From a virus: 64,000 bases of DNA. A program made the translations under genes and the position numbers. The stretch lies in the IMG/VR virus record IMGVR_UViG_3300037193_001894, positions 17,352 to 81,351 of that record. One strand, given 5' to 3'. Each line of letters begins with the position of its first letter. The stretch's first letter is position 1. This document shows, piece after piece, positions 14,665 to 63,050 of the stretch. The notes beneath the pieces were generated by a model that had not been told where the DNA came from, made no database searches, and worked only from the letters and a program-made list of their open reading frames with translations.

Positions 14665-14703
14665 AAGCGCCCCTGCACCCCTTCAAGGGGCTCAGGGACG
14701 CTT
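14665..14703 (-). terminator. Imperfect hairpin between DinG-like helicase and lysis cassette
   Basis: On the minus strand AAGCGTCCCTGAGCCCCTT can pair with AAGGGGTGCAGGGGCGCTT with a few mismatches. It overlaps most of the 37-bp element at 14676-14712, so it might be part of that element rather than a terminator. Confidence 0.4.
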
Positions 14704-14712
14704 CGACAGCAG
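14676..14712 (-). repeat. 37-bp late-unit element, copy a (before the lysis cassette)
   Basis: Minus strand CTGCTGTC, 20 bp, GAAGGGGTG; both boxes match the consensus exactly. It ends 32 bases above the ATG at 14643. This is the only copy in the replication half, and it precedes the only late-type genes there. Confidence 0.75.
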
Positions 14713-14727
14713 ACCGGTTGAAATGGT
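14713..14727. promoter_or_regulatory. 15-bp site related to 8470-8484
   Basis: ACCGGTTGAAATGGT differs from ACCGATTGAAACGGT at 8470-8484 at only two positions, with ACC and GGT ends in dyad symmetry. It touches the stop codon of the helicase gene and abuts the 37-bp element copy a. A protein-binding site is possible. Confidence 0.35.
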
Positions 14728-16655
14728 CAGTTTGCGTAGAACTCCTTGACCGTGGAGAAGTCGGTGGCCCGGGGGCTGCCCGGCAGGCCCTTGACGATCT
14801 TGCCGCCCCAGCCGGTGTTGGTGAGCCTGGAGTCGAGGATGGCCACGACGCCCTTGTCCTCGGCGGTGCGGATCAGACGGCCGTAGCCCTGGACAAGGGT
14901 CAGCGTCATCATCGGGATGGTCAGGTCCCGGAAGGACGACCCGCCGAGCCGCTCGACCTGCTCGGAGCGGGCCGCGAAGACCGGCTCGGTCGGCACCGGG
15001 AAGGGCAACTTGTCGATGACGACCAGGCGGCAGGTGTCGCCCTGGAAGTCCACCCCGGTGAAGAACGACTTGAGCGCGAACAGCACCGAGTGGGTGTCCT
15101 CGACGAACCGAGCCGCCAGGTCCTTGTTCGAGCCCTGGCCCTGGACCAGCGGGGTGTAGCCCTGCATCTCCAGCCACGGCGAGAGGGTGTCGTACGCGGC
15201 CTGCATCGAGGCGCGGCTGGTGAACAGCATCAGAGCGCCACCGCCAGCGGCCGAGATCAACTCCTGCATCGCCACGCCGGACCAGGACAGCCAGGCAGCC
15301 CGCTCCTTGGGGGAGGGGATCGCCCGGTCCGGGGTGTAGAGCAGCGCCTGCTTGGTGTAGTCGAACGGGGTGCCGACGTTCATCGACTCGGTGGTCTCGG
15401 GGAGCCCGAGCCGGTCCTTGATGAAGGAGAAGTCCCCGTTGACCGAGAGCGTCGCGGAGATGAGCACGGACGGGGTGGTGTCCCACAGCCACGCGGCAAG
15501 GTAGGAGCCGACGTGCACCGGGGCCGTCTTGATCAGGGTCTGCTTGCCCGCCCGGTTCTCGGTGACCTCGGTCCAGCGGACCAGCAGGTCGTCGTCCATC
15601 GTCATGGCGTCCACGAGCCGGTCGGCGTAGTTGTTGGCCCGCTTGACCAGCCGGGTGCGCTTGGTCTCCTCCTTGACATCGCCACGGCTGATCGTGATCT
15701 CGTCGATCTCCTCGGCGAACGCACGCAGGGCCTCGACCAACTCCATGAACACCTCGGAGTTGTCCACGAAGAACCGCAGCGGGAGCCGCTCCCTGTCGCC
15801 CTTCTCGTCGATGAGCGCCCAGACCTCCTCGGTCTTCATCGCCACCTCGGTGTCGTTCTTGAGGGCGACGCCCTGGACGGCGGCGAAGGTGTTGACCTCG
15901 CCGACCATCGCGGTGATGCCGGTCTTGCGGACCTCGCTGCCCAGCGCGTTGGTGGCGTACTCCTCGGTCTCGTGGGCCTCGTCGATCAGCACCAGGTCGT
16001 ACTCGCCGAGCATCGTGGCGTAGCCGTCGGTCATCTCGCGGACCTTGAGGTCGGCCATCAGCATCGCGGTGTTGGTCACCACGACCTGGGCCTCGCGGCC
16101 CTTCGCCTTGGCCTTCTCGGCGAAGCAGACCTCGCCGAAGGGGCACTTGCGCTTGCCGGGGCACTCGTTGGAGGTCGAGGCGACGTAGGAGAACTCCTCC
16201 TTGGTCACGGGGGTCTCGAAGTGCTCGCGGTCCCCGGTGTGGTTGTCGTCGGCCTCCAACTCGTCCAGCATCGCCTTGAGGTGGGGAACGCGGGCCTGGG
16301 CCTTGGGGTCCACGGCCTTGGCCCGGCAGAAGTAGTTGGACCGGCCCTTGACCAGCGCCCAGGTGAACGGGACGCCGAGGTGCTCCTGGAGGAACGGCAC
16401 GTCCTTGTTGGCGTACTGCTCCATCAGCGCGATCGTGGCGGTGGCGACGATGGTCTTCTTGCCGCCGAGGATGGCGGGGATCATCGTGGCCAGCGACTTG
16501 CCGGTGCCGCAGCCAGCCTCGGCCAGCCCGTGCCCGCCCTCGGCGATGATCTTCTCCACGAAGGCGGCGAGGGCCTGCTGCTGGGGGCGCTCGGTGTAGC
16601 CGGGCAACTTCGCGGCGAGCACCTTCTCTGCGTCTGCGAAGGTCTTGATCGTCAT
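14727..16655 (-). CDS. XPD/DinG-like superfamily 2 helicase with Fe-S cysteines
   Basis: 642 residues from ATG 16655, which has AGGAGA 6 bases upstream. Q-motif-like ERPQQQALAAFV precedes Walker A AEAGCGTGKSLA; DEAH box is VLIDEAHETEE; motif III-like VLISATLS; motif VI-like QGYGRLIRT. Four cysteines between motifs I and II (YFCRAK, ECPGKRKCPFGEVC) are placed as in the iron-sulphur domain of XPD/DinG helicases. It should be a 5'-3' DNA helicase acting in repair or recombination. The frame stays open for 74 more codons to an ATG at 16877; see the separate entry. Confidence 0.88.
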   Translation of the reverse strand: MTIKTFADAEKVLAAKLPGYTERPQQQALAAFVEKIIAEGGHGLAEAGCGTGKSLATMIPAILGGKKTIVATATIALMEQYANKDVPFLQEHLGVPFTWALVKGRSNYFCRAKAVDPKAQARVPHLKAMLDELEADDNHTGDREHFETPVTKEEFSYVASTSNECPGKRKCPFGEVCFAEKAKAKGREAQVVVTNTAMLMADLKVREMTDGYATMLGEYDLVLIDEAHETEEYATNALGSEVRKTGITAMVGEVNTFAAVQGVALKNDTEVAMKTEEVWALIDEKGDRERLPLRFFVDNSEVFMELVEALRAFAEEIDEITISRGDVKEETKRTRLVKRANNYADRLVDAMTMDDDLLVRWTEVTENRAGKQTLIKTAPVHVGSYLAAWLWDTTPSVLISATLSVNGDFSFIKDRLGLPETTESMNVGTPFDYTKQALLYTPDRAIPSPKERAAWLSWSGVAMQELISAAGGGALMLFTSRASMQAAYDTLSPWLEMQGYTPLVQGQGSNKDLAARFVEDTHSVLFALKSFFTGVDFQGDTCRLVVIDKLPFPVPTEPVFAARSEQVERLGGSSFRDLTIPMMTLTLVQGYGRLIRTAEDKGVVAILDSRLTNTGWGGKIVKGLPGSPRATDFSTVKEFYAN

Positions 16656-16877
16656 GGCTGTCTCCTGGTGTCGGGCTCTCTGGCTGGTCTCAGCGTACAC
16701 CAAGGAATCTGGGTGCGCGACACCGGAGATAGAAAAAACTCTGGGGGCTCGGCAGGCCGGGTCGCCGTGCACCCAGGCCCCGTAGTGCACCGAGTCCGGA
16801 TCCGACTCCTTGGTCCACCCGCCGTTGGCGATCCCGACCGGGTGCGAGCAGGACTCCACCGCCACCTCAGCGCTCAT
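16656..16877 (-). other. In-frame N-terminal extension or separate small ORF before the helicase
   Basis: ATG at 16877 overlaps the upstream gene's stop as ATGA and begins MSAEVAVESCSHPVGIANGG, continuing through HYGAWVHGDPACRAPRVF, which looks like a real small Cys/His protein. There is no stop before the helicase ATG. The last 30 codons use AGA, GTT, TTT, TCT, TTG and ACA and contain a T6 tract, unlike the flanking genes, as if non-coding. Either a 716-residue helicase exists or a small gene has lost its stop. Confidence 0.5.
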
Positions 16878-17095
16878 GCGTTCTCCTCGTACCAGCAGCG
16901 GAGCCGGTCGGCCTCGATGTCGGCCGAGGCCTGCGTCGGATGGGCCTGCTTGATCTTCCCCAGCCCCGGGCGCTGCCCCGGGAAGGAGCCGGTCGCCCGA
17001 TCGTAGACACCGTAGACCACCTTGCGGGGGCCGACCGGGATCGGCTTGACGATGAACCGGACCGCGCCGGTCGGCAGCGTCCTCTCGGGGGTCAC
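16874..17095 (-). CDS. Hypothetical protein (73 aa)
   Basis: GTG 17095 overlaps the metalloprotease-like gene's stop as GTGA. The product starts MTPERTLPTGAVRFIVKPIP as initiated and ends RLRCWYEENA; VVYGVYDRATGSFPG resembles short beta-hairpin proteins that follow DUF1508-like patterns, but the match is weak. Coupled on both sides. Confidence 0.7.
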   Translation of the reverse strand: MTPERTLPTGAVRFIVKPIPVGPRKVVYGVYDRATGSFPGQRPGLGKIKQAHPTQASADIEADRLRCWYEENA

Positions 17096-17856
17096 GAGGC
17101 CTCCAGGGCTCGGGCGGTGGCCAGCGCGTGGGTGCGGGGCTTGGAGCCGGACGGCCCGAACCGTCCCGCCTTGACGTTGGCCCGGATCGCCTCCGCCGCC
17201 TGGTGCCGGGCGGTGTAGCCGACCAGCCTGCGCTGCGCGGCCTCGCGCTGGCTCTCGGCCTGGGCCTTCTCCTGGCGCTTGGCGGCAGCGGCCTGCCGGG
17301 ACCGCTCGGCCTGGGTGACCACCGGATGCCCGGGCTTCGGCACGTCGGCCATGGTGTACCGGACCCGCTTGGCCTTGAACGAGGCCCGCAGGGTGTCGGC
17401 GTGCGTCTTGCCCATCTGGTAGCGGACCAGGGTGAGCAGCACCCCGGCGAACTCCGGCCCGTGGTGGGCGTGGTGGTAGCCGGTCAGGCAGTGCGCGATC
17501 TCGTGGAGGATCACCACCTCGCTGCGGCGGTGGACCTGGCTGACGGTGATCTCGCCGTACGCCCCGTGCGAGCCCCGGCCCGCGACCACGGTGATCTTGC
17601 GTCGCCCCCAGCGGGACTGGAACCAGGCGGCGCTGGTCACGGCGTCCACGTAGGCCTGGGTGGCGGCGACGGTCGGGCACTTCATCTGGACGGACTTGCC
17701 GTCCTCGATGACTCCCCATCCGGCGACGTGCTGGGTGTCCACGAGGTGCTTGGTCGCCGTCCGGCTGACCCGGAGGTCCCTGATCGCGTCCTCGGCGTCG
17801 TAGAGCCGCTGGCGCTGGTTGTCCCGGGCCTGGCCGGGGCGCAGTGCGTTCGGCAT
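17092..17856 (-). CDS. Putative zinc metalloprotease (HExxH)
   Basis: 254 residues. The motif VVILHEIAHCLTGY places H118, E119 and H122 in an HExxH zinc site, with a likely third ligand in HHAHHGPEF near residue 132, the arrangement seen in SprT-like and related minimal metallopeptidases. The preceding ITVSQVHRR and AYVDAV segments form the strand region. Residues 175-254 are a basic, Ala/Gln/Arg-rich coiled-coil tail (ERSRQAAAAKRQEKAQAESQ) likely to bind nucleic acid. Substrate unknown; SprT-like proteases act on DNA-protein crosslinks, which would suit a replication region, but this is inference. Confidence 0.72.
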   Translation of the reverse strand: MPNALRPGQARDNQRQRLYDAEDAIRDLRVSRTATKHLVDTQHVAGWGVIEDGKSVQMKCPTVAATQAYVDAVTSAAWFQSRWGRRKITVVAGRGSHGAYGEITVSQVHRRSEVVILHEIAHCLTGYHHAHHGPEFAGVLLTLVRYQMGKTHADTLRASFKAKRVRYTMADVPKPGHPVVTQAERSRQAAAAKRQEKAQAESQREAAQRRLVGYTARHQAAEAIRANVKAGRFGPSGSKPRTHALATARALEAS

Positions 17857-17857
17857 C

Positions 17858-18160
17858 TCAGAGCAGCCCCTTCGCGTTCGCGATCCGGGTGACCTCGGTC
17901 TTCTGGGTCGGGTAGGCCGTGAAGGGCTTCAAGTGCCGGTTCGCCTCCAGGGTCTTCTCCCAGCCCGCGAGGGCCTCCCACTCCACGAGGTGGATCCGGT
18001 AGGCGGCACCCCGGACGTTCTTGACCTTCTCGACCCGGGCGACGGTGACGGTTGCCATCTGTCCCCCGAACGGGTCGAAGGTGCGGCGCTGGAGCCGATC
18101 GCCGGGCTCCAGGTCCCGGGGGATCACCCGGGTCGTGTACTCGAATGTCTCGTCCGTCAT
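17858..18160 (-). CDS. Hypothetical protein (100 aa)
   Basis: ATG 18160 (MTDETFEYTTRVIP) is preceded by GGGAGAG. A small beta-rich domain is suggested by DLEPGDRLQRRTFDPFG, MATVTVARVEKVKNV and YRIHLVEWEALAGWEK. It is the first gene below the 18161-18437 intergenic region and precedes the metalloprotease-like gene by 1 base. Family not recognised. Confidence 0.72.
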   Translation of the reverse strand: MTDETFEYTTRVIPRDLEPGDRLQRRTFDPFGGQMATVTVARVEKVKNVRGAAYRIHLVEWEALAGWEKTLEANRHLKPFTAYPTQKTEVTRIANAKGLL

Positions 18161-18224
18161 GACTCTCCCTGGTGTCGTGCTGGCCCCTCTGGCGGGGGCA
18201 GGACCACTGCCGGTCCCTGGGACC

Positions 18225-18230
18225 ATCTTA
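18225..18230 (-). promoter_or_regulatory. Candidate -10 box TAAGAT
   Basis: TAAGAT on the minus strand is preceded by GGAATGTGG; no TTGAC-like -35 is found at 17-18 bp. It would serve the gene at 17858-18160. Weak evidence. Confidence 0.3.
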
Positions 18231-18397: not shown

Positions 18398-18437
18398 CAA
18401 GGTGCCCTCCCTCGTGCCGCTCCGTGAGGTTGCAGCA

Positions 18438-32512: not shown

Positions 32513-33878
32513 GCGGCACGGCCTCCATCCGGGGCTCCGAGAAGGGGTGCGAGACGAGCACGCCCTCCGAGGCGTACCGAGCCGCCAGCGCACGGCGGGG
32601 GTCCATGATCGACCGGTCGGCGGTGAACCGCTCGCGGGTGCCGTCGCGGTAGGTCACCAGTTGGTCGGTGCGGGTGTCGGTGATCGGCCCTCGGCCTGGC
32701 TCGTCCTTGGCGTCGTCGTTGGGGTCGAAGGAGTACGACTTCACCGCGACCACCTCGGGGTTGTACGACCACTCCGCAGCCTGCTGGACAGACCACGGGG
32801 GCTTCGGGATCGAGCGGCGGTCGGAGGCGAGCAGGCCCTCCAACTCCTGGCGCAGCGAGAGCGGGTACGGCTCGATCCCCTCGGGGGTGATCAGGTCGCC
32901 GCGAGGGGCCACCCGGGTGGAGACCTCCCAGTAGTTGGAGTCGGCCACCAGGTTGGTGATCGGCGCGTCGCGGTGCAGGGCCACGCCGTCGGGGTTGACC
33001 GTCAGCAGGACGCTGGCGGGCTTGAGCACGTTGAGCACCCGGATGATGGCGCTCATGTCCTCGGCCCGCTGCCGGTCCGCCTCGTCCTGGCCGTCCTCGT
33101 CGGCGATCCGGATGTAGTCCTTCTTCGGGTGCACGACGACCTCGGCCCGGGTGTTGATCCCGGTGCGGCCGATGGTCACGATGTCCTCGACCTGGCTCCA
33201 CGACGGCAGGTTCGGGCTGGGGTTGGACTGCTCGATCTGGTCCCAGGTGCCCAGGGCCTCGACCTCGTTCCAGGTGAGCCCGGTGCTGCCGGTGCCGAAC
33301 GTGTCGAGCAGGCTCCAGACCTCGTAGATCTCGCACTCGACCTGGGTGATCGCCTCGGCCGCAGCCTTGATGCCCGGCAGCGTCGCCCCGAGGTTGATCG
33401 CGGAGGCCAGCCTGTAGATCCGGTCCCGGAACGCCGCGTCGCGGTTCTCGATCTGGTCCCACTCGTTCGGCGTGGCCGTGTCGGTGTGGGGGTTGATCCA
33501 GAGCAGTTCGTTGGCGAAGCGCGAGATCCCGAAGATCGCCCCGTAGAACCGGTCGAGGTCGTAGAAGTGCGTGCTCTGCAAGGCGTTCTGGAACTGCACG
33601 ACCGTGTTGCGCTTGCGCAGTTGCCCGGCCCCGGACTCGCCGAGCAGGGCCTTCATCAGCCGGACCAGGTGGCTGTCCTCGCGCAGGTCGTAGAGGTTGT
33701 CCGGGAAGTGCGCCAGCCGGTCGCTGACGGACTTGTCCGGGATGGCCATGCCGGTGGCCGAGGAGAGGCCGGTGACCTGCGGGGTGCTCGGGTCGATCTG
33801 GGTGGACATGATGTCCTGGAACGGCCGGTCGGTGCCGTCGAAGAACGGCTCGTTCTGGGTGAAGATCGCCTCGGTCAT
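32505..33878 (-). CDS. Baseplate/tail protein (457 aa)
   Basis: ATG 33878 overlaps the baseplate-J stop as TGATG. The order gp25-like wedge, baseplate J, then this gene matches contractile-tail operons where a third baseplate protein (phage tail protein I/gpI-like role) follows J. Sequence features: helical N-terminus (LVRLMKALLGESGAGQLRKR), DLDRFYGAIFGISRF, and the motif TWNEVEALGTWDQIEQSNPS also found twice in the next protein. The assignment as wedge partner of J is from position. Confidence 0.72.
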   Translation of the reverse strand: MTEAIFTQNEPFFDGTDRPFQDIMSTQIDPSTPQVTGLSSATGMAIPDKSVSDRLAHFPDNLYDLREDSHLVRLMKALLGESGAGQLRKRNTVVQFQNALQSTHFYDLDRFYGAIFGISRFANELLWINPHTDTATPNEWDQIENRDAAFRDRIYRLASAINLGATLPGIKAAAEAITQVECEIYEVWSLLDTFGTGSTGLTWNEVEALGTWDQIEQSNPSPNLPSWSQVEDIVTIGRTGINTRAEVVVHPKKDYIRIADEDGQDEADRQRAEDMSAIIRVLNVLKPASVLLTVNPDGVALHRDAPITNLVADSNYWEVSTRVAPRGDLITPEGIEPYPLSLRQELEGLLASDRRSIPKPPWSVQQAAEWSYNPEVVAVKSYSFDPNDDAKDEPGRGPITDTRTDQLVTYRDGTRERFTADRSIMDPRRALAARYASEGVLVSHPFSEPRMEAVPHG

Positions 33879-35749
33879 CACAGGCCCCCGAACGAGTTCT
33901 CCGCCCGCAGCACCTTGACTGCGGAGTGGAACACCGGCAACTCCCCGTCGCCGAACCGCAGGTCGGAGGGTCGCCCGGTGGCATCGACGAACGACTGCGT
34001 GACGACGCCCTCGACCATCCGCTGCACGCCGACGGTGTAGCCGTTCGGGGCGGCGGAGTTGTACCCGGCGTGGTCGCCGCCGTGCAGGAAGCGCACGTTG
34101 TCCACGCCCGGGACGTTGTGGACGATCTGGAGCAGGTCGGAGATCTGCACCCGGCCCTGGAAGCCAGCCCGGACGAAGTGCTCGCCCAGCGCCCGGTCGA
34201 TCTCGGAGTTCACCACCGGCTGGTTGGCCCGGGGCTCGTACATGATCGCCAGGGAGAGCCGCAGTTCGACCAACTTCGCCTGGTGGGTCCTGGCGTCCAC
34301 CCCGAGCAGCCGCCAGCGCTCCACGGCCGTCTGGATGCTCGCCACCATGGCGTTGTAGAGGTAGGGCGCGGTGCTCTGCCCGCCGACCGTGAAGACCGCG
34401 CCGTCGGGCGGCAGGTAGCCGACGGCGTTGTGCCACTCCAGGCCGAACGCGGAGGTCGGGGTGTAGCCGAAGGCGTCGTCCTGGTGCACCACCCGGTAGG
34501 CGTAGCGGACGGTCTCCCCGCCGATCGTGGCCTCGGTCCCCATCGGGTTCGCTGCGGTCGCCAGGCCGAACACCTGGCCGCTGACGCTCAGCGTCGAGGG
34601 CACGGCCATGATCGGGCCGAAGGCGAGCGGGACGAAGACGTTGCCGATGGCCGGAGGGGTCTCGTCGAAGCGGCGGAACTTGTGCCGCGACAGGGGGTCC
34701 ACCGTGGGCAGCGCGATGTCGTTGAAGACGTTGGTGGAGTTGAACACGACGGTCTGCACCGCAGACTGAGCCCGACGGCCTCCGACCCAGAGGTCCACCC
34801 GGTTGGTGATGCCCGACTCCGGCCGGTTGCGGCTGGCCAGAGGCTGGTACTCGAAGTCCACCTCGATCATGGTCTCGTCGGGGATCTTGGTGGCGTCGAG
34901 CACGTTGACCTTCGGCGGGTTGACCGTGGTGTCCCAGGAGTAGTCGCGGCCCTTGAGCGCGATGTCTCCGGCGTCGATGTTCTCCCCGACGAACACCGGC
35001 TCGCTGTAGATGTAGAAGGCGTCGTCCACGGTGGTCTGGCCGACCCCGGCGACGATCTGCACCTGCTCGCGGCGCTTCTTGCTAGCGCCGATCACGTTGG
35101 CGGCGTAGCAGTTCGGGTCGTCCAGGGCGACGCCGAGGTACATCTGCTCGGTGCCCGCGAGGTTGCGGAAGACCGTCTTCTTCCAGCGGGTCCGCAGTTC
35201 CTCGTCGGTCTCCTGCGAGGTGCCCCCGGTCAGCGGGCTGACGTTGGCCACCGAGCCGACCCCGGCGATCGGGGTGGAGATGGCCGTCAGAGCGTTGGCC
35301 GCGAGGTTGCCAGACGGGCCGCTCTCGACCGCCTGGACGGCCACGGTGACGCTCATCGCCCCGGGCTCGATGTAGGCCCCCGAGACGGTCTGCACGACCA
35401 CCGGGGGCGTCGTGGTGGAGGTGATCTCGGTGTTGACCGGGATGAAGACCGTGCTGGTCAGCGAGGAGGACGCGGCGCGGGTGAACACCACGGTGCCCGA
35501 GGCCCGCTTGCCCGCCAGCCGCGCCAAGCCGAACAACTGCACGAAGTCGTCGAGGTCGGCCTCGATCTTCGAGTCGATGTCGTACTGGTAGGACAGCAGG
35601 TAGGAGTCGATGTAGGCCTCGGCCACGGACTCCGACACCGCGTCGATGATCTTGCGGGTGGTGGTGCCTACCGAGGTGTCGAGTTCGGGATCGGTCAGCC
35701 GCAGGGTGGAGATGATCTGGCTGGCCACATCGTTGATTCGCGCCGTCAC
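33878..35749 (-). CDS. Baseplate J-like protein
   Basis: 623 residues from GTG 35749, overlapping the wedge gene's stop as GTGA. Key features of the family: N-terminal helices (IIDAVSESVAEAYIDSYLLS), DLDDFVQLFGLARLAGKRAS, TVFIPVNTEITSTT, the GNLAANALTAISTPIAGVGS motif and GGTSQETDEELRTRW, all characteristic of Mu gp47/P2 gpJ-type wedges. It forms the baseplate wedge of a contractile tail. Strong call. Confidence 0.9.
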   Translation of the reverse strand: MTARINDVASQIISTLRLTDPELDTSVGTTTRKIIDAVSESVAEAYIDSYLLSYQYDIDSKIEADLDDFVQLFGLARLAGKRASGTVVFTRAASSSLTSTVFIPVNTEITSTTTPPVVVQTVSGAYIEPGAMSVTVAVQAVESGPSGNLAANALTAISTPIAGVGSVANVSPLTGGTSQETDEELRTRWKKTVFRNLAGTEQMYLGVALDDPNCYAANVIGASKKRREQVQIVAGVGQTTVDDAFYIYSEPVFVGENIDAGDIALKGRDYSWDTTVNPPKVNVLDATKIPDETMIEVDFEYQPLASRNRPESGITNRVDLWVGGRRAQSAVQTVVFNSTNVFNDIALPTVDPLSRHKFRRFDETPPAIGNVFVPLAFGPIMAVPSTLSVSGQVFGLATAANPMGTEATIGGETVRYAYRVVHQDDAFGYTPTSAFGLEWHNAVGYLPPDGAVFTVGGQSTAPYLYNAMVASIQTAVERWRLLGVDARTHQAKLVELRLSLAIMYEPRANQPVVNSEIDRALGEHFVRAGFQGRVQISDLLQIVHNVPGVDNVRFLHGGDHAGYNSAAPNGYTVGVQRMVEGVVTQSFVDATGRPSDLRFGDGELPVFHSAVKVLRAENSFGGL

Positions 35750-36177
35750 AGGGTCACCGTCCGGTTGAGTTCCACGTCCAGCCCGGCCTGAGTGGTCAGG
35801 CTGATCCGGATCGAGATCGAGTCGTCACGCACCTGGGCCTCGATGTCGTTGACCTTCCGCACCACGTCGGCCGTGGCGAAGCGGCTGCGGCGTCCGTTGA
35901 GCATGTCCTGGTAGACCTCCTGGTCCTGGATCGCGATGTACTGCGCGATCACCCGGGACACCTCGGAGCGCACCTGGAACTCCATGTCCTCGGTCAGGGG
36001 CTGGCCGATGTAGTCGATGAGCACCGAGCCCCATCGGTCCCCGTGGAACCGGTCGGTGCCCCAGCGCTCCCCAAGGGCCAGCGAGAGGTCCTGCCGGACC
36101 TTCGTCGCTCCGGAGACCACGGCGTGGCCGGACTGACCGACCACCAGGTCCCCGTTGCTGAGCGCGAGAGTCTTCAT
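35746..36177 (-). CDS. Baseplate wedge protein, gp25-like
   Basis: 143 residues. SGATKVRQDLSLALGERWGTD and RWGSVLIDYIGQPL correspond to the LL.T..GERvm.P.yG conserved part of T4 gp25/XkdS-type proteins, followed by an EDMEFQVRSEVSRVIAQYIA helix. ATG 36177 has GGAGG 7 bases upstream and lies 11 bases below copy b of the 37-bp element. GTGA-coupled to baseplate J. Confidence 0.85.
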   Translation of the reverse strand: MKTLALSNGDLVVGQSGHAVVSGATKVRQDLSLALGERWGTDRFHGDRWGSVLIDYIGQPLTEDMEFQVRSEVSRVIAQYIAIQDQEVYQDMLNGRRSRFATADVVRKVNDIEAQVRDDSISIRISLTTQAGLDVELNRTVTL

Positions 36178-36188: not shown

Positions 36189-36225
36189 CATCCCTTCATG
36201 GGCCTCACCGGGGGACCGACAGCGA
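36189..36225 (-). repeat. 37-bp late-unit element, copy b
   Basis: Minus strand TCGCTGTC, 20 bp, GAAGGGATG. It ends 11 bases above the wedge gene's ATG, so the proximal box is immediately next to the Shine-Dalgarno. The upstream gene's stop is 7 bases away. Confidence 0.65.
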
Positions 36226-45152: not shown

Positions 45153-46646
45153 TTAGGCTGCTGCGTCCTGCTCCTCGATGAGGATCTCGCTCGTGCTGAG
45201 GTCCATCGAGAAGGAGACGGTGATGTAGTTGAGGGGCAGGAACGGGCGGTAGGTGAACTGGGCCTCGATCGCCGTCGGGTCCCCGCTGGGCAGGGACTGC
45301 TGGCGGACCTGGAGGTCGAGCCACTCGCGCAGCACCAGGTCGGTCTCGGCCGCGTCGAGGATCCCGGTCAGGATGCCCTTGACCCGGATGGTCATCTCGT
45401 CGTCGATCGGGTCACCGATCAGGTCGGCCGCGATGATGCCCTCGGAGACCAACTGGTAGAGCGTGTCCTGCGAGCGGGTGACGCTGATCTCGCGGGTGAG
45501 CAGGCTCGTCGGGTCGGTGGAGATCCCGTGCCGGACGACCAGCCGGTTGGACCGGCCTACCTCGGTGACCGCCACCCCGGCCGCAGACAGGGTGTTCTTG
45601 AAGGTCCGCGTCATCTCGCTCTTGACCGTGGTCGGGATGCCGCTGAACCCGTAGATCTGCTGCTGGGTCAGGCCCCGGTTGAGGTCCGAGGCCGCGAGCC
45701 GCCCGGCGTACGCCGCCGCCAGGTACTGGCCACCGACCTCGGTGGTCTGGCCGAGGTTGTTGTTGTAGAGGTGCATCCGGTTCGGGAACGCCAGCATCAC
45801 CCGCTTGGAGCCCACCGCAGCGGCCACCTCGTCGAAGGACGTGCCCGAGTCGTCGTAGAGCGTGTCCGCCCCCACGAAGGCGATCCGGCCGAAGCCGGAG
45901 GCTGCCTGGGTCTCGCAGTGGGTGCGGGCGTCGGAGACCAGCCCGGCGAAGCCCGAGGTGTAGGCCGTCCCGTCGGTGTCGGGGGCCGCGAAGACCGGCA
46001 CCAGCAGCGTCGTGGAGTAGGACTCCTGCAACTTGGTGTAGGCCTGCTGGAACCGGGTGCGCAGGTTGATCTCGGTCGTGGTCGGCTCCACGGCCAGGCA
46101 GACCACGGTGCCCGCGCCGTTCTCGAACGCGATCCTGGCAGCCAGGGACACCGGGCTGGCGACCTGGGATCCGTCCGGGTCGCTGGGCAGCGAGGAGAGC
46201 ATCGCCGGGCCGTAGATCTGCTCGACCGAGTAGTACTCGTCGAAGCGCTGCGGGGAGTAGTAGGTCTCGTCGGCGTAGGAGTAGGAGACGGTGACGACCT
46301 CCCCCTCGGTGACGGCCGTCGATGCCCCGACTCGGGCGATCGTGGTGGACTCGCTGGCGGTGGCTCCGCGCACCAGCGCGTAGTCGGTGTTCTCCACCAG
46401 GACCGTGCCGTCGGCCTTGGTCACCACGAGGTCCGGGCTGGTGTCGCTGTCGGGCAGCACGCCCTTGTTCAGCAGCGGCTTGGCCGTCGTCGTCAGCGTG
46501 ACCGACTCGGTGGAGACCTGGTACCCCCGAGCCTGGCCAACAACGGTGACGGTCGTGGTCGGCACGCCGACGGGGGTGACGATGCCCTCGGCGTTCCCCC
46601 GGACATAGACCCCGGGCGGGTTGTACTGAGTGAAGTCAACAGTCAC
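45153..46646 (-). CDS. Contractile tail sheath protein
   Basis: 497 residues from GTG 46646 with GGAGGA upstream. N-terminal NPPGVYVRGNAEGIVTPVGV is the typical sheath start (PGVYV), the middle has SGFAGLVSDARTHCETQ and a nucleotide-binding-like strand pattern RIAFVGADTL, and the C-terminus RPFLPLNYITVSFSMDLST is the hallmark sheath end that hands over to the tube. This gene shows the phage is a myovirus. The unit is preceded by copy c of the 37-bp element. Confidence 0.92.
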   Translation of the reverse strand: MTVDFTQYNPPGVYVRGNAEGIVTPVGVPTTTVTVVGQARGYQVSTESVTLTTTAKPLLNKGVLPDSDTSPDLVVTKADGTVLVENTDYALVRGATASESTTIARVGASTAVTEGEVVTVSYSYADETYYSPQRFDEYYSVEQIYGPAMLSSLPSDPDGSQVASPVSLAARIAFENGAGTVVCLAVEPTTTEINLRTRFQQAYTKLQESYSTTLLVPVFAAPDTDGTAYTSGFAGLVSDARTHCETQAASGFGRIAFVGADTLYDDSGTSFDEVAAAVGSKRVMLAFPNRMHLYNNNLGQTTEVGGQYLAAAYAGRLAASDLNRGLTQQQIYGFSGIPTTVKSEMTRTFKNTLSAAGVAVTEVGRSNRLVVRHGISTDPTSLLTREISVTRSQDTLYQLVSEGIIAADLIGDPIDDEMTIRVKGILTGILDAAETDLVLREWLDLQVRQQSLPSGDPTAIEAQFTYRPFLPLNYITVSFSMDLSTSEILIEEQDAAA

Positions 46647-46681: not shown

Positions 46682-46718
46682 CACTCCTTCGGAGGCGTCG
46701 TCAGAGGTTCGACAGCAG
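46682..46718 (-). repeat. 37-bp late-unit element, copy c (before the sheath gene)
   Basis: Minus strand CTGCTGTC, 20 bp, GAAGGAGTG. It ends 35 bases above the sheath GTG and begins 5 bases below the upstream stop. CTCCGAAGGAG forms a small hairpin around the proximal box. Confidence 0.7.
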
Positions 46719-48979: not shown

Positions 48980-49230
48980 CCGTCGCCGTCCCCGTTCCCG
49001 TTGGCCTCGTCCTGCTTGACCTCAGCCCGCGAGGCTTGGTACGCCGACCAGTGTCCGACGAAGTTGGCCCACACGCTCATCAGGGCCACCCACAGGACCG
49101 ACTCGCCCCACCACAGGACGGTGGGGACCACCAGCAGTCCCCAGATGACGGTGGTCACCAGGTGGAAGGTGCTCAACTGCTTCGGGGTGGGGGTCGGGGT
49201 CTTCTCGTTGATCTTGCTCAGCAGGCCCAT
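48976..49230 (-). CDS. Small membrane protein (84 aa)
   Basis: ATG 49230 (MGLLSKINEKTPTPTPKQLS) overlaps the upstream stop as TGATG. Two hydrophobic helices: LVTTVIWGLLVVPTVLWW and VLWVALMSVWANFVGHW, then an acidic tail (DEANGNGDGDG). Its place in the neck cluster is unusual for a membrane protein; it could be a second holin-like or superinfection-related protein. Confidence 0.65.
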   Translation of the reverse strand: MGLLSKINEKTPTPTPKQLSTFHLVTTVIWGLLVVPTVLWWGESVLWVALMSVWANFVGHWSAYQASRAEVKQDEANGNGDGDG

Positions 49231-49943
49231 CAGTCGTCTCCTACTGGGATCAGCGGTGCGCGGATGATCTCGAACGTGGAGAAGTCCACGGGGACCTTGC
49301 TCGCCGTCGCCAGCACGGCGTCCACGGTGGCCCTGTTCGGAGGGATCAGGTAGGCCACCGAGGTCGGGTCCTCCAGCGAGGCCCTGGCGTGGTTGTAGCC
49401 GATCGCGTCGGCGCTCTGGAGCGGCATCCCGAAGCCGGTGCGCAGGGTGACCCGCTGCGGCACCCGGAGTTGGAACCGGTTGCCGTTGCCCCGGAACACG
49501 TAGTCGCCGCTGCGCACCCGGAAGTCGGGGGTGCTCTCCACCGAGAGGTCCTCGGGCTTGGCGATGCCCCGGGCCTGCTTGGTCTCGCCCTCGTCGGAGT
49601 CGGAGAAGATCGCGGGCCGGACGATCCGGGCCTTGAACCCGCCCTCGAAGGTCGTGCCGAAGCACTCCGGGCAGCGGTGCTCGATCGGCTGGTTGTAGGT
49701 CTCGGCGATCTTCTGCTCGATCGGGTCCGAGGATCCGTAGCAGCGCGAGCATCGGGCCACCAGACCGGCCTCGTGGTCGGCGATGTGCCAGAGCAGCACG
49801 AAGACGGCGTACTCCCCGACCTGGTAGATCGCCTGGGAGTGCCGCATCCGCTCCTGCTCGACGGCCCAGTCCTGCTGGTCGCGGACGTAGTAGGGCTGGG
49901 CCGTGGGCACGTCGGTGGACACCGGGGGCTCGCGGTACGTCAT
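49230..49943 (-). CDS. Neck/connector-region protein with zinc ribbon (237 aa)
   Basis: ATG 49943 is preceded by AAGGGG at a good distance; a GTG 6 bases earlier is possible. Residues 65-98 have two CxxC pairs (ARCSRCYGSS and HRCPECFGTT), a zinc ribbon. The C-terminal part is strand-rich (FRVRSGDYVFRGNGNRFQLR, VPVDFSTFEIIRAPLIPVGD). It begins the neck unit below copy d of the 37-bp element. No family fixed. Confidence 0.7.
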   Translation of the reverse strand: MTYREPPVSTDVPTAQPYYVRDQQDWAVEQERMRHSQAIYQVGEYAVFVLLWHIADHEAGLVARCSRCYGSSDPIEQKIAETYNQPIEHRCPECFGTTFEGGFKARIVRPAIFSDSDEGETKQARGIAKPEDLSVESTPDFRVRSGDYVFRGNGNRFQLRVPQRVTLRTGFGMPLQSADAIGYNHARASLEDPTSVAYLIPPNRATVDAVLATASKVPVDFSTFEIIRAPLIPVGDD

Positions 49944-49968: not shown

Positions 49969-50005
49969 CACCCCTTCGCAGGGCTCAGGCCGGGCCGGAC
50001 AGGAG
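49969..50005 (-). repeat. 37-bp late-unit element, copy d
   Basis: Minus strand CTCCTGTC, 20 bp, GAAGGGGTG; a second CACCCCTTC (plus strand) lies at 49946-49954 near the start codon. CCCTGCGAAGGG around the proximal box can form a 4-bp stem with a GCGA loop. Begins 2 bases after the stop at 50008. Confidence 0.7.
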
Positions 50006-58096: not shown

Positions 58097-58100
58097 CAGG

Positions 58101-58742
58101 TCACTCCAGGAACAGGACGACGGCCTTGAGGCCGATGACGTGGATGCCGTTGTTCGAGAGCGTCGCGACCTCGGCCCTGGCCTGGATCGAGTGACTGCCC
58201 GCCGCGACCCCCGTGCGGAAGCCGAGCAGCGGGAACATCACCTCGGTGTTGCCGCTGGTCTCCGAGGCCCCGTAGTCGGCGAACCGGTAGACGTTGGAGT
58301 AGCCGAAGTTGCACGAGGTCCCGTCGATCCACGGGGTGATCGTGATGGCCTGCTTGATGTTGGCCTCTTGGCGCACCCGGGCGACCATCAGCACGCCCAG
58401 CGACGCGGGCCGGGTCAGGGTGACCGAGCCGAGGGTGAAGGTCGCAGCCACGCCCTTGCCGAGCATCTGGCTGGGGAAGGTGTCCACCGTCGCGGCGCGG
58501 CCGTAGTCCTGGGTCGGCACGAAGGTGGTGCCGTCGAAGACCAGCGTCCGCAGCGTGTCGGTCTCGACGATCTTCATCCCGGTCTTGGCAGCGTCCCACG
58601 AGGGCCGGGTCGTCGAGGTGCAGACGAAGTGGCCCGGGAAGGCCTCCAGGATGTCGAAGTTGTCCACGAAGTCCTGGCGCAGGAACGGGTCGTCCCCCAG
58701 CGGCCTCTTGAGTTCCAGCCGGGGAGTCAGCGGCATAGGCAT
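58101..58742 (-). CDS. Fibre/decoration protein with CTSTTRP module (213 aa)
   Basis: Two tandem ATGs (58742, 58736). MPMPLTPRLELKRPLGDDPF leads to FVCTSTTRPSWDAAKTGMKI VETDT-type module also seen at 51060. The rest is a beta-sandwich (FTLGSVTLTRPASLGVLMVA, GNTEVMFPLLGFRTGVAAGS, SIQARAEVATLSNNGIHVIG) like head-fibre or minor tail proteins. First gene below copy e of the 37-bp element. Confidence 0.7.
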   Translation of the reverse strand: MPMPLTPRLELKRPLGDDPFLRQDFVDNFDILEAFPGHFVCTSTTRPSWDAAKTGMKIVETDTLRTLVFDGTTFVPTQDYGRAATVDTFPSQMLGKGVAATFTLGSVTLTRPASLGVLMVARVRQEANIKQAITITPWIDGTSCNFGYSNVYRFADYGASETSGNTEVMFPLLGFRTGVAAGSHSIQARAEVATLSNNGIHVIGLKAVVLFLE

Positions 58743-58770: not shown

Positions 58771-58807
58771 CACCCCTTCGCAGCCCTCGGGTGGGGCTCG
58801 ACAGCAG
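58771..58807 (-). repeat. 37-bp late-unit element, copy e
   Basis: Minus strand CTGCTGTC, 20 bp, GAAGGGGTG, both boxes exact. It ends 28 bases above the ATG at 58742 and begins 8 bases below the WhiB stop. Confidence 0.75.
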
Positions 58808-58815: not shown

Positions 58816-59121
58816 TCAGGCGACGGGAGCCCCTCCACGCCGCTTGAGCATCTGCCGCCGCTGGCGCTCGGTCAGCCCCGCACGGAAGCCGTGCTGGATC
58901 GGCTCCTCCAGCGCCCGTTCGAGGCAGATCTCGCGGACGGCGCACTCCTCGCACATCGCGGCGAGGAAGGACATCACGCTCTTGGCCGACTTGACCCGGA
59001 CCCGGCGCTCGTCGCGACTCTCTCCCGGGTACCTCGACGGGTGGACCTGGGTGAAGTGCACCTCCGGGTCCACCGTCCCGCAGGACGCCTGGTCCATCCA
59101 CTCAGTGCTCTTGACTGCCAC
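58816..59121 (-). CDS. WhiB-family transcription factor
   Basis: 101 residues from GTG 59121 with GGAGG upstream. The four cluster cysteines are C14, C57, C60 and C66 (ASCG; AAMCEECAVREICLE), the C-x(n)-C-x2-C-x5-C pattern of WhiB proteins that hold a [4Fe-4S] cluster. W8 and D10 precede C14 as usual, and the end GFRAGLTERQRRQMLKRR replaces the GVWGG turn and basic C-terminal motif. WhiB proteins bind the primary sigma factor and redirect RNA polymerase; phage WhiB can repress or activate. It stands alone between two copies of the 37-bp element. Restricted to actinobacteria and their phages. Confidence 0.88.
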   Translation of the reverse strand: MAVKSTEWMDQASCGTVDPEVHFTQVHPSRYPGESRDERRVRVKSAKSVMSFLAAMCEECAVREICLERALEEPIQHGFRAGLTERQRRQMLKRRGGAPVA

Positions 59122-59147: not shown

Positions 59148-59184
59148 CACCCCTTCGCAGCCGAGAACGTGGCCTAGACAGCAA
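59148..59184 (-). repeat. 37-bp late-unit element, copy f (before the WhiB gene)
   Basis: Minus strand TTGCTGTC, 20 bp, GAAGGGGTG. It ends 26 bases above the WhiB GTG and its distal end overlaps the first 4 bases of the hairpin at 59181-59217. Confidence 0.7.
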
Positions 59185-60306: not shown

Positions 60307-60349
60307 TCCTCATTCGCTTCCTGTGTGGGACGACCCGAGCGGGCCGTGC

Positions 60350-61009
60350 TTACTTCTTGTACTCGACGATGCCCTTGCGAGCCTGGCCCTTCTTCTCGGC
60401 CGCGACGATGCGCTTGAACTCCTTGTCGTCGGCCTTGTCCAACTCCTTCTGGACCTCGGGCACGGTGTGCTCGTCGGGGTTGTAGGACCCCTTCGAGGAC
60501 GAGCCCTTCGAGCCACCGTCGCCGTCGCCGGAGCCGCCGTCGCCGCTCTCGTTGACGGCGTGCGGGACCTCGCCGCTCTGCGCCTTCGGGTCGTTGTCCT
60601 TGGCGGTCGTGGCCGCGTCGAGCGCGTCCTCGCCCTCCTCGGTGCCGCTGCGCTCACGGAGCGTCTCGGCTGCCTGCTGGCGCTCGGCGTCGTCGGAGAC
60701 CTCCGGGTACGCCCCGTCGTTCTCCTCCAGGTCCGTGGCCGCACGGGCGTCGGCGGCGTTGAAGGTGTCGGTGACGTTGCGCAGGTCCTCGTGCGGGCCG
60801 GGACCCACGTCGGAGGTGTCCAGCGTGCCGGTCATCGCCGTGGGGTCGGGGGTGGCCCCGGACTCCTCGTTGTAGACGCCGGTCGCCTCGGACGAGGGGA
60901 TGACGTTCTCCCCCGCCTTGGGGCTGTCCGAGGCCTGCCCGGACTCCTGCTCGTTCCCGGCCGTGTTCTGGTCCTGGTACGAGCCCTTGTTGTTGGCGGT
61001 GATGCCCAT
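60350..61009 (-). CDS. Disordered acidic protein (219 aa)
   Basis: ATG 61009 with AAGGAG upstream. Almost entirely low-complexity, rich in Asp, Glu, Ser, Gly and Ala (MGITANNKGSYQDQNTAGNE; GDGGSGDGDGGSKGSSSKGS), with a short ordered-looking C-terminus (VPEVQKELDKADDKEFKRIV, KKGQARKGIVEYKK). A scaffold-like or internal head role is possible given its acidic nature and place, unproven. Confidence 0.7.
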   Translation of the reverse strand: MGITANNKGSYQDQNTAGNEQESGQASDSPKAGENVIPSSEATGVYNEESGATPDPTAMTGTLDTSDVGPGPHEDLRNVTDTFNAADARAATDLEENDGAYPEVSDDAERQQAAETLRERSGTEEGEDALDAATTAKDNDPKAQSGEVPHAVNESGDGGSGDGDGGSKGSSSKGSYNPDEHTVPEVQKELDKADDKEFKRIVAAEKKGQARKGIVEYKK

Positions 61010-61040
61010 GAGTCGTGCTCCTTACTGTGGGGGTGGGAGG

Positions 61041-61586
61041 TTACTGCTGCTGCCGCTCGGGGGTCCCCATGGTGACGCGGACCCACTTGCGCACACTGCT
61101 TGTACCCTCTTGCTCCTCGGAGGGAACGTACTGCGATGCCAGCGCCTGGTGCTGCTGGCACAGCGGCGGGTGGTCGTTCTTGGTCTGCTCCCGCACCGGA
61201 ACGTCTGCCCCGCAGCGGCCCTGACCTCGGCTGTCCGGCCCCACACAGGGCATCGAGATCACGTCGTTCTGGGCCACGTCGTCGATGCTGGCGAGGGCCT
61301 GCTGAGCCGCTCCCGAGGAACGCTTCTCGAAGGCCTCTCGCTGACGCAGGACAGCCTGGTCGAACACCTCCTCCAGCGAGGCGTCCATCTTCTCGATGAT
61401 CCCTCTCTGGAGCAGCCGGATGAACGGCACGGAGTTCGCGATGGACTCGGGCACGATCTGGATGTCGCCGCCTGCGGGGTCGCCCGACGGCTGCCACTCC
61501 ACGTACTCTGAGCCCTTGGCATCTGAGGACAGCACGACCACCTGCTTCTTGGTGTTCCGTGCCGCCACCTGCGTCGTCAACTGCAT
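61041..61586 (-). CDS. Head-region hypothetical protein (181 aa)
   Basis: ATG 61586 has GGAGG 5 bases upstream; a TTG 12 bases earlier is less likely. Starts MQLTTQVAARNTKKQVVVLS; strand-rich first part (KGSEYVEWQPSGDPAGGDIQ IV), then a long helix (LQRGIIEKMDASLEEVFDQA VLRQ), then two Cys in ISMPCVGPDSRGQGRCGADV and one near PPLCQQHQ with His, perhaps a zinc site. Head-completion or structural; unknown. Confidence 0.7.
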   Translation of the reverse strand: MQLTTQVAARNTKKQVVVLSSDAKGSEYVEWQPSGDPAGGDIQIVPESIANSVPFIRLLQRGIIEKMDASLEEVFDQAVLRQREAFEKRSSGAAQQALASIDDVAQNDVISMPCVGPDSRGQGRCGADVPVREQTKNDHPPLCQQHQALASQYVPSEEQEGTSSVRKWVRVTMGTPERQQQ

Positions 61587-61624
61587 GAGAGCCTCCAAGG
61601 CTGATCGGGGGAACTTGGGTGTTC

Positions 61625-61661
61625 CACCCCTTCACCGGGCTCAGGAACGCTCAGACAGCAG
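61625..61661 (-). repeat. 37-bp late-unit element, copy g
   Basis: Minus strand CTGCTGTC, 20 bp, GAAGGGGTG, both boxes exact. The distal box overlaps the last codons and stop of the upstream gene; the proximal box is 38 bases above ATG 61586. Confidence 0.75.
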
Positions 61662-63003
61662 GCCGGACCAGCGCGAGCACGTCGTCGAGGTCCACGCTGG
61701 TGGTGGGCTCCCAGTACCCACGGGCTGCGATCGAGGCCACCGACTGAGGCGGGTACAGCCTGCGCTCGCTCGTGTCGGCGATCTGACCGGTCCCGTCGGG
61801 GTGCTCGATCAGGAACCGGTTCGGCCCCTGCTGGGCGATGACCTTCCCCTGCATGGCTCCTCCTAGGATGCGCTCTAAGTTTCCTTGGTAGCGTACCGCA
61901 TTCCGCAGGAAGTGGTCCTTGACATCGAGGGGCACCCCCGAGTGGGGGTGGTCCGTGTGCACCCAGGGGACCCCCTTGTCGTTGAGGTGCTCCTTGAGCC
62001 GCTCCACCGCAGCCTCGTGGCGACCGCCGCGCAGCACCGCGTAGTGCAGGTCGTGCAGGCTGACGCCGCCGTGGAACTGGGCCTCGGTGTAGTCGCCGAA
62101 CCCGCGATCCCGGTCCAGGTGGTGGTCCTTGTGGATCTGGATCCTGTGCGCGGCGTCCCGCTCCGGGGTGTTGCGCTCATACTCGTCGAGGTCGGTGTTC
62201 CACTTCGACCGCAGCGGGATGGCGTGCTCGTTGAACGCCTGCACCGGCTGGGGGCGGACGTGCATGTGGTTGTTCAGCGAGTCCCCCACGCAGGCGGTCG
62301 TCCGGTGCCACACCACCGGCTTCTTGAGCACCAGCAGGTGCCTGCCGTAGTGGTGGGCCAGGGTGTTGCGCAGCGGGTGGTGGGCCAGGATCCCGTACAC
62401 GGGCCTGGCGTGGCTGGGATGGTCCGGAGGGTGCCCGTCCTCGGGCTCGGCGCTGTCGGAGTCGTAGCCCATCATCGTGGCGGTCTCGTGCCACTCCCTG
62501 CCCGCCTCGCTGGGGTAGCCGAAGTGCATGTGCTCGACCCCGGCCCGGGTCTCCTCGTGCAGCATCCCGTTGGAGGTGCCGGACTCGAACTGCGACTTGT
62601 AGCGGCCGTCGTGGAGCACGCTGCCGAGCACGTGGGTGTCCACCGCGATGCAGGGGGTCCCCCGGGAGACGTGGTGCTTGATCCGATCGACCATCTTCGT
62701 GAACCGGTGGTAGTTGTCCCCGTCGTCCAGCCCGTCGTGGTGATCCCACGACCAGTCCATGTCGTAGCCGCTGCCGAAGCCTCCGTCCAGGAACGGGTTG
62801 TGGTGCGTCCCGGCCAGGCTCCCCCAGACGTTGGGGTTGCTCCGCTCGTGGTAGAGCGGGTGGCCCGGGCGGGTCCCCTCTGGCGGCAGCAGGCTGTGCC
62901 CCGGCATCCCGGGCAGCGACGGCTGGCCAGGGTCCTGCGTCCCGAACCCGTAGTGGTCCAGGATCTTCGGCGGCTTCCACCCGCGCAGTTCGTCCTTCGG
63001 CAT
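61651..63003 (-). CDS. DUF3626-like protein with fused C-terminal part (450 aa)
   Basis: ATG 63003 (MPKDELRGWKPPKILD) has GGAGG 6 bases upstream. Residues 85-330 match the DUF3626 pattern: QFESGTSNGML, RAGVEHMHFGY, RPVYGILAHH, a YGRHLLVLKKPVVWHRTTAC block, GDSLN, and AQFHGGVSLHDLHYAV. The enzymatic role of that family is not established. The last 67 residues, from ATG 61854 with AGGAGG 4 bases upstream, form a separate small domain (GPNRFLIEHPDGTGQIADTS). The junction uses CAA, GGA, TTA and CTA codons, unlike the rest, as if it were once intergenic. Confidence 0.65.
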   Translation of the reverse strand: MPKDELRGWKPPKILDHYGFGTQDPGQPSLPGMPGHSLLPPEGTRPGHPLYHERSNPNVWGSLAGTHHNPFLDGGFGSGYDMDWSWDHHDGLDDGDNYHRFTKMVDRIKHHVSRGTPCIAVDTHVLGSVLHDGRYKSQFESGTSNGMLHEETRAGVEHMHFGYPSEAGREWHETATMMGYDSDSAEPEDGHPPDHPSHARPVYGILAHHPLRNTLAHHYGRHLLVLKKPVVWHRTTACVGDSLNNHMHVRPQPVQAFNEHAIPLRSKWNTDLDEYERNTPERDAAHRIQIHKDHHLDRDRGFGDYTEAQFHGGVSLHDLHYAVLRGGRHEAAVERLKEHLNDKGVPWVHTDHPHSGVPLDVKDHFLRNAVRYQGNLERILGGAMQGKVIAQQGPNRFLIEHPDGTGQIADTSERRLYPPQSVASIAARGYWEPTTSVDLDDVLALVRPAV

Positions 63004-63013
63004 CCGCCACCTC

Positions 63014-63050
63014 CATCCCTTCGCAGTTCCGGGGCTCGCCGGGACAGCAG
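63014..63050 (-). repeat. 37-bp late-unit element, copy h
   Basis: Minus strand CTGCTGTC, 20 bp, GAAGGGATG. It ends 10 bases above ATG 63003 and its distal end overlaps the capsid terminator at 63049-63085 by 2 bases. Confidence 0.7.

What the first reader, a model, noticed from the sequence alone, without database searches (positions are those of the whole stretch)
14676..63050. An exactly 37-bp bipartite intergenic element occurs eight times in front of late genes
On the minus strand the consensus is CTGCTGTC, exactly 20 bp, GAAGGGGTG. Copies: 14676-14712, 36189-36225, 46682-46718, 49969-50005, 58771-58807, 59148-59184, 61625-61661, 63014-63050. All share the length of 37 bp, orientation, and lie 10-38 bases above a start codon and mostly within 2-15 bases of the upstream stop. 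The 20-bp middle is only partly conserved (a GGGCTCAGG-type core on the plus strand in three copies). Fixed spacing between two boxes argues for recognition of both on one DNA face or one RNA fold, not for unrelated hairpins. Seven copies head virion units and one heads the lysis cassette; none is in replication intergenic regions. It may be a late promoter for a modified polymerase, or a leader that binds a phage regulator. It resembles in spirit the start-associated sequences of some mycobacteriophages (established idea; the sequence itself is different).
Basis: partly seen in the sequence, partly recalled or inferred. Interest (0 to 1): 0.92.

Follow-up and report, generated by a model that had tools for sequence, protein, structure and literature searches.

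The report
Late-gene promoter of actinobacterial contractile-tailed phages
A rigid 37-41 base DNA signal sits in front of the virion and lysis genes of a whole family of large phages of actinobacteria and is most likely their late-gene start switch; no published description of it was found in the papers searched.

Summary
All eight copies are real, at the stated coordinates and strand (0.33 ± 0.62 expected by chance). A ninth lies outside the window in the same 81-kb viral record. The phage is an uncultured relative of mycobacteriophages Myrna and I3/Bxz1 and Rhodococcus phage E3. In related viral genomes the same element occurs 11-17 times per record, on the coding strand only. The two boxes are spaced at 20 bp in 79 pairs, with at most 2 pairs at any other gap. 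Alignment extends it to T[CG]CTGTC-N10-yNAGnCC-N3-GAAGGGGTG-RRGG. It heads 31 of 119 late-gene orthologues and 0 of 73 non-late ones (p = 8e-8). No RNA structure is conserved. Drifted versions occur in the cultured phages Myrna, I3 and E3. Relatives also carry a separate sigmaA-like repeated promoter, confined to the block of small genes. The phages lack a detectable sigma region 2 but share a syntenic sigma-region-4-like protein. Best reading: a late promoter with a -35-like box, read by host RNA polymerase redirected by that phage factor. Promoter function is well supported by sequence evidence; the identity of the factor is inferred.

The parts
63014..63050 (-). Late-promoter element copy (box A 63043-63050, box B 63014-63022), directly behind a terminator-like hairpin; heads the gene that starts near 63003 (DUF3626 domain)
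61625..61661 (-). Element copy (box A 61654-61661, box B 61625-61633); overlaps the upstream gene end by 11 nt; heads gene 61041-61586
59148..59184 (-). Element copy directly behind hairpin AGCCCCTCC..GGAGGGGCT; heads the WhiB-like gene 58816-59121
58771..58807 (-). Element copy; heads gene 58101-58742 (unknown), followed by the orthologue of E3 structural protein gp107
49969..50005 (-). Element copy; heads 49230-49943, orthologue of E3 structural protein gp108
46682..46718 (-). Element copy; heads the tail sheath gene 45153-46646
36189..36225 (-). Element copy (3 mismatches); heads the baseplate genes (35746-36177, then the baseplate wedge 33878-35749)
14676..14712 (-). Element copy; heads a short gene (14485-14643) and a 318-aa gene with a weak endolysin match (13532-14488)
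58816..59121 (-). WhiB-like regulator gene (PF02467, 48.5 bits against a cut-off of 23.6), itself headed by a copy; possible co-factor
63051..63081 (-). GC-rich hairpin AACCCCCGGCC...GGCCGGGGGTT ending at the first base of the 63014-63050 copy; terminator-like
   Evidence: sequence

Best explanation
The element is the late promoter of this phage family. Box A (T[CG]CTGTC) plays the part of a -35 element, and the region yNAGnCC-N3-GAAGGGGTG plays the part of the -10 and start region. If box A bases 3-8 are placed at -35 to -30, the conserved purine just after box B (position 38) falls at +1, and the transcript begins right before the ribosome binding site. Late in infection host RNA polymerase is redirected to these sites. 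The most likely specificity factor is the phage's own sigma-region-4-like protein (record 10037-10414, minus strand, outside the window), which would bind the polymerase beta flap and box A in place of host sigmaA region 4. What reads box B is unknown: either host sigmaA region 2 working at an unusual -10, or an unrecognised phage partner. Shown by sequence: the element, its rigid geometry, its restriction to late genes, its conservation, and the wide presence of the sigma-4-like protein. Inferred: promoter activity, the start site, timing, and the link between the protein and the element.
For: (1) Rigid spacing. In relatives the pattern gave 6/27/34/44 matches with 0/1/2/3 mismatches at gap 20, with no coding-strand hits at 0-1 mismatches and at most 5 at 2 mismatches at other gaps from 8 to 32. 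Scored boxes gave 79 pairs at gap 20 and at most 2 at any other gap, and at most 1 per gap on the reverse strand. (2) The central bases were not used to pick sites, yet A21, G22, C24 and C25 are conserved, and sequence downstream of position 41 is not. (3) Whole records: 9-17 sites each above 21 bits, nothing between 9 and 21 bits, and no reverse-strand site above 9 bits. (4) Late genes only: 31 of 119 late orthologues against 0 of 73 others, p = 8e-8. The tail sheath carries it in all six records and the baseplate gene in five; MCP-operon, prohead protease and LysM genes carry it in most records that hold those genes. (5) Among sites with at least 35 nt of non-coding sequence upstream, 26 of 50 have a hairpin ending at the element, against 736 of 2787 control positions. 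(6) Window 46-64 kb holds no sigma70-type promoter match. (7) Relatives carry a different sigmaA-like repeated promoter almost only in the small-gene block. (8) Each group has its own spacer and box B dialect, and Myrna, I3 and E3 have drifted versions: leave-one-out scores 19.8, 20.0 and 11.7 bits against 4.0, 4.6 and 0 on the reverse strand, as expected of DNA sites co-evolving with a protein. (9) A sigma-4-like protein is conserved in synteny; its model (pLDDT 90.6) matches -35 binding domains of M. tuberculosis sigma factors, e.g. the RslA partner and SigD. (10) No RNA fold.
Against: No transcript data exist here. Box B (GAAGGGGTG) is GC-rich and does not look like a melting -10 element. 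No sigma region 2 was found in any of these phages, so the sigma-4-like protein cannot be a complete sigma by itself. The Foldseek E-values are weak (best sigma-4 match 0.05, though probability is 1.00). The hairpin enrichment is only twofold. Phages in which no such element was detected (Finch, Stormageddon) still encode a related sigma-4-like protein or other sigma-like domains, so the protein could serve another purpose. The weight matrix was trained partly on the records then scanned, so one search is not fully independent (searches are).
Confidence: 0.72

Rival explanations
1. A DNA-binding activator, for example the sigma-4-like protein acting as an Ltr/ArpU-type late regulator or the WhiB-like protein, binds the element, and host sigmaA polymerase starts from an unrecognised -10 nearby.
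For: Small late activators that switch on phage late operons are known (Ltr, RinA, Alt; PMC13123087). A WhiB-like gene is present and is itself headed by a copy.
Against: No TATAAT-like hexamer is conserved in or near the element. At the many sites where the start codon is only 9-12 nt from box B there is no room downstream for a separate -10.
Confidence: 0.15
2. An RNA element in the 5' leader: a translation or stability signal, or a binding site for a phage RNA-binding protein, like the start-associated sequences of cluster K phages.
For: Always on the coding strand and close to start codons. Box B resembles an extended Shine-Dalgarno sequence (sequence).
Against: No consensus fold in 83 sites and mean folding z only -0.39. 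Rfam finds nothing. Distance to the start varies widely and a separate Shine-Dalgarno follows. The 20-bp spacer tolerates any sequence but no length change in the group that holds this window. Hairpins directly upstream would end transcription before it.
Confidence: 0.08
3. A repressor or antiterminator site, like the stoperators of cluster A phages or nut/put sites.
For: Short, asymmetric, oriented, repeated and intergenic, as stoperators are (PMC3029335).
Against: Restricted to late genes at a set place before the start. Cluster C relatives show no integrase or prophage functions (PMC3029335). Two boxes at fixed spacing rather than one 13-bp site.
Confidence: 0.04

Closest known systems
T4 late promoters with the split sigma gp55 + gp33
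   Same: Class of late genes each with its own short promoter, read by host RNA polymerase with phage sigma-like parts; gp33 (112 aa) is a sigma-4 mimic on the beta flap, gp55 docks where sigma domain 2 docks (PMC2988020).
   Different: T4 late promoters have only a TATAAATA -10 box and no -35 (recalled from general knowledge, not tested here). Here the strongest box is at the -35 position, the -10 region is GC-rich, and the phage protein has a recognisable sigma-4 helix-turn-helix. No sigma-region-2 partner was found.
Start-associated sequences (SAS/ESAS), cluster K mycobacteriophages
   Same: Short, oriented, repeated sequence before phage genes.
   Different: SAS is GGGATAGGAGCCC at the ribosome binding site, 3-7 nt from the start, in non-structural genes; the sequence, position, spacing and gene class all differ (PMC3203893).
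18-bp intergenic motif of Microbacterium cluster EC phages
   Same: Repeated, oriented motif 21-30 bp before start codons in phages that encode a sigma factor; function not known (PMC7302621).
   Different: Sequence TAGaCTCTaGGTgTaAgC, one block, mostly before non-structural genes.
Ltr / RinA / Alt late regulators of Gram-positive phages
   Same: Small phage protein switching on late genes.
   Different: Known sites are direct repeats upstream of a normal sigmaA promoter (PMC13123087).

Membership tests
Phage late promoter class (functional kind) | Present before late genes and absent before early/replication genes | tested here: met
   31/119 late against 0/73 non-late orthologues, p = 8e-8
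Phage late promoter class (functional kind) | Two boxes at promoter-like fixed spacing, oriented with transcription | tested here: met
Phage late promoter class (functional kind) | Transcription starts at it, late in infection | not testable with these tools
   no transcript data
Host sigmaA (TTGACA-17-TATAAT) promoter | -35/-10 consensus hexamers | tested here: not met
   no match in 46-64 kb; no such hexamers in the alignment
T4-type late promoter | A single TATAAATA -10 box without a -35 box | tested here: not met
   the alignment shows a GC-rich box B and a strong upstream box
SAS/ESAS | GGGATAGGAGCCC 3-7 nt before the start, non-structural genes | tested here: not met
Structured RNA leader / riboswitch | Conserved secondary structure or a known RNA family | tested here: not met
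Sigma-70 family (for the 125-aa protein) | Region 4 (-35 binding) domain | tested here: met
   PF08281 27.1 bits, cut-off 25.7; fold match to mycobacterial sigma -35 binding domains (weak E-value)
Sigma-70 family (for the 125-aa protein) | Region 2 (-10 binding and core docking) | tested here: not met
   no PF04542 match in 11 phage records while controls rang
Single-subunit phage RNA polymerase promoter | Phage encodes such a polymerase | tested here: inconclusive
   no PF00940 match, but the control did not ring

The most novel reading that the evidence does not exclude
A late-transcription system in which a stand-alone, phage-encoded sigma region 4 replaces the host's region 4 on RNA polymerase and, with an unknown partner that reads a GC-rich start box, selects a promoter class with a new -35 box (CTGTC) and a non-canonical -10. 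It would be an actinobacterial counterpart of the T4 split sigma, evolved separately and shared by the Bxz1/Myrna/E3 superfamily.
Probability: 0.4. Interest if true: 0.82.

Novelty: new variant of a known kind. Interest (0 to 1): 0.64.

Why it matters
Cluster C mycobacteriophages (Bxz1, I3, Myrna) make up most of the sequenced relatives found here, yet no description of how they turn on their virion genes was found in the papers searched. This gives a defined sequence, its copies in cultured phages and a named candidate factor, so the question becomes directly testable. If true, it adds a promoter class with a new -35 and -10 to the known ways of redirecting actinobacterial RNA polymerase, and it gives an annotation rule for the late operons of a large, mostly uncultured phage group.

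Tried and rejected
RNA fold and covariation: none. Rfam: none. Hairpin between the C tract of the spacer and the G tract of box B: C25 is fixed, but positions 22 and 24 do not keep pairing and alifold gives no pair. A leader peptide starting at the GTG/ATG that ends box B: reading on from each copy gives no consistent frame or stop. Plain sigma70 promoter: rejected. A first hairpin test limited to loops of 3-8 nt gave no enrichment (10/29 against 89/258); it was replaced by a test allowing longer loops and position-matched controls, so that line is weaker evidence. Pattern hits L001/L005 in unrelated contigs look like chance or another phage and were excluded. A scan for close relatives of the sigma-4-like protein found none, because it diverges too fast. 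The motif was not recovered in Finch or Stormageddon. The EM motif in Skog locked partly onto another repeat, so only its individual sites are used. Look-ups near the window by megablast and by one 742-aa protein gave nothing.
Full report
Observation. The pattern CTGCTGTC-N20-GAAGGGGTG with up to three mismatches occurs exactly eight times in the window, at the coordinates given, all on the minus strand; shuffled sequence gives 0.33 on average and never more than 3. The window is positions 17352-81351 of an 81,351-base IMG/VR record, and a ninth copy is at 4140-4176 of that record. The copies lie 10-38 nt before a start codon.

Which phage. The major capsid protein is 63-64% identical to those of mycobacteriophages Phabba, Myrna and HyRo and Rhodococcus phage E3. 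Tail sheath, baseplate wedge, tape measure, head decoration and other structural families are recognised, as are DnaB, DnaG, DnaC-like and 5'-3' exonuclease genes. So this is an uncultured contractile-tailed phage of the Bxz1/Myrna/E3 group. All predicted genes in the record run on the minus strand, so the strand bias of the element among intergenic places is expected; its place and spacing are not.

Relatives. Eighty contigs encoding close capsid relatives were fetched. In these, gap 20 alone is enriched: 6, 27, 34 and 44 matches with 0, 1, 2 and 3 mismatches, against none with 0-1 mismatches and at most 5 with 2 mismatches at any other gap from 8 to 32. Aligning 109 distinct sites gives T[CG]CTGTC (positions 2-8), weak yNAGnCC (19-25, with C25 99% and A21 55%), GAAGGGGTG (29-37), then purines to position 41, with no conservation beyond. 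The central bases played no part in choosing the sites. Whole records hold 9-17 copies (G000 9, G001 11, G002 14, G005 16, G006 17, G007 16). Their scores are above 21 bits, with nothing between 9 and 21 bits and nothing above 9 bits on the reverse strand.

Place and gene class. The same genes are headed in different phages: tail sheath in all six, the baseplate gene (E3 gp121 orthologue) in five, and in most records that hold them a gene of the capsid operon, the prohead protease and a LysM-like gene. Using E3 gene order as the yardstick for late and non-late genes, 31 of 119 late orthologues have the element directly upstream and 0 of 73 others do (p = 8e-8). The distance from box B to the start codon is at least 9 nt at all but two sites (-3), mostly 9-40 nt, with a tail to about 110 nt; the two negative and the few larger values come from doubtful gene starts. 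Where there is non-coding sequence upstream, a hairpin ends at the element in 26 of 50 sites, against 736 of 2787 control positions; two window copies show this plainly.

A second promoter class. In three relatives another repeated sequence is among the top dyads: TTGAC...TAGTCT in G007, TTGTACTCC...GTAGTAG in G002, and TTGAC...TAACCT in G005. It lies about 70 nt before starts, almost only within the block of small genes (G007 mostly 19-66 kb, G002 34-80 kb), whereas the present element lies at 72-135 kb plus 14 kb, and at 87-144 kb plus 26 kb. It is sigmaA-like. Two promoter classes with separate territories are what an early/late switch predicts.

DNA or RNA. No consensus structure is found in 83 sites, the mean folding z-score is -0.39, and no strong co-variation links box positions. 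Rfam finds nothing. Rigid length with a free sequence fits protein recognition of two DNA sites about two helical turns apart.

Cultured relatives. A matrix trained only on environmental relatives finds Myrna sites such as ACCCTGTG-N20-GAAGAGGTGAGG and I3 sites such as AGCCTGTA-N20-TAATAGATGAAGG and GACCTGTC-N20-GAATAGATGAG. Refitting within each genome with leave-one-out scoring gives 19.8 (Myrna), 20.0 (I3), 11.7 (E3) and 19.0 bits (G008), against 4.0, 4.6, 0 and 8.2 on the reverse strand and at most 5.4 in shuffled regions of these four; Finch and Stormageddon give nothing. E3 sites read TGCTGTC...CAATAGG and stand before, among others, gp76, gp84, gp87, gp98 (endolysin), gp99, gp100 and gp204, nearly all annotated structural or lysis genes. 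In G008 some sites appear to have a 21-bp spacer. Box A is the better conserved part between groups (CTGT); box B drifts (GAAGGGGTG, GAATAGRTG, GAAAGGGTA, CAATAGGYA).

Candidate factor. E3 gp160 is annotated as 'putative RNA polymerase sigma-70 factor, region 4'. Its homologue here is record 10037-10414 (minus strand), 125 aa, PF08281 at 27.1 bits, above the curated cut-off. Homologues are found in G002, G005, G006, G007, G008 and in I3, Myrna, Skog and E3; the 60-kb fragment G001 shows none. Where the neighbourhood was read they lie downstream of the Holliday junction resolvase and exonuclease genes and next to a DUF7236 gene. The helix-turn-helix stretch is NPVxxYATxGLKK here and TPVQQYSDxGLKK in cluster C. 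The predicted structure (pLDDT 90.6) matches -35 binding domains of M. tuberculosis sigma factors with probability near 1 but modest E-values. No sigma region 2 was found in eleven of these phages while controls rang. The protein is therefore a stand-alone region 4. T4 gp33 is a precedent for a small sigma-4 mimic on the beta flap acting with a separate region-2 part (PMC2988020).

Mechanism. If box A bases 3-8 are the -35 hexamer, the canonical 17-bp spacer puts the -10 hexamer at positions 26-31 and the start at position 38, which is nearly always a purine, right after box B. Transcripts would begin just before the Shine-Dalgarno sequence, and about nine nucleotides, roughly the least room a ribosome binding site needs, is the smallest credible distance seen. 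This geometry is an inference. That the sigma-4-like protein reads box A is a reasoned guess (about 0.5); what reads box B is unknown.

What is known. No description of this element was found in the open papers searched. The comparison with SAS (PMC3203893) fails on sequence, position and gene class. The Microbacterium cluster EC motif (PMC7302621) is the nearest parallel in setting. The finding is best filed as a new variant of a known kind, a phage late promoter class, with a candidate factor.

Limits. There are no expression data. Gene calls are my own. Late and non-late labels rest on E3 gene order. The matrix was partly trained on records it was then used to scan; searches are free of that.

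Noticed in passing
Relatives G007 (oriented 19-66 kb), G002 (34-80 kb), G005 (57-83 kb): A second repeated promoter-like sequence, sigmaA-like (TTGAC/TTGTAC ... TAGTCT/TAACCT), about 70 nt before start codons with a recurring CGACTCC leader, confined almost entirely to the small-gene (probably early) block.
   Followed up: partly
G002 oriented 102256 and G007 oriented 84715 (L008:6026-6062, L003:6464-6500): The copy before the LysM-like gene carries an inverted box B in its spacer, so the element becomes a near-palindrome that also scores on the other strand; possible two-way promoter.
   Followed up: no
L010:8999-10414 and homologues in L116-L142: Conserved gene trio: sigma-4-like protein, small DUF7236 protein, and a ~220-aa protein with CxxC and helix-turn-helix-like segments, upstream of the terminase gene.
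   Followed up: partly
window 58816-59121 (-): WhiB-like regulator gene inside the virion region, itself headed by a copy of the element; E3 has one among its structural genes too (gp75).
   Followed up: partly
window 62177-63003 (-): DUF3626 domain protein in the gene directly after the major capsid gene.
   Followed up: no
I3 (W06), G025, G009, Stormageddon (W04), Finch (W03): Other strongly repeated dyads: I3 GGAATGA-N16-GTTATACT, Stormageddon CTTGC-N15-TGTGTATATT, Finch TGTAACG-N17-GACATAC, and in G025/G009 an AGAGC-N27-GTTCGA dyad that may reflect tRNA gene arrays.
   Followed up: no
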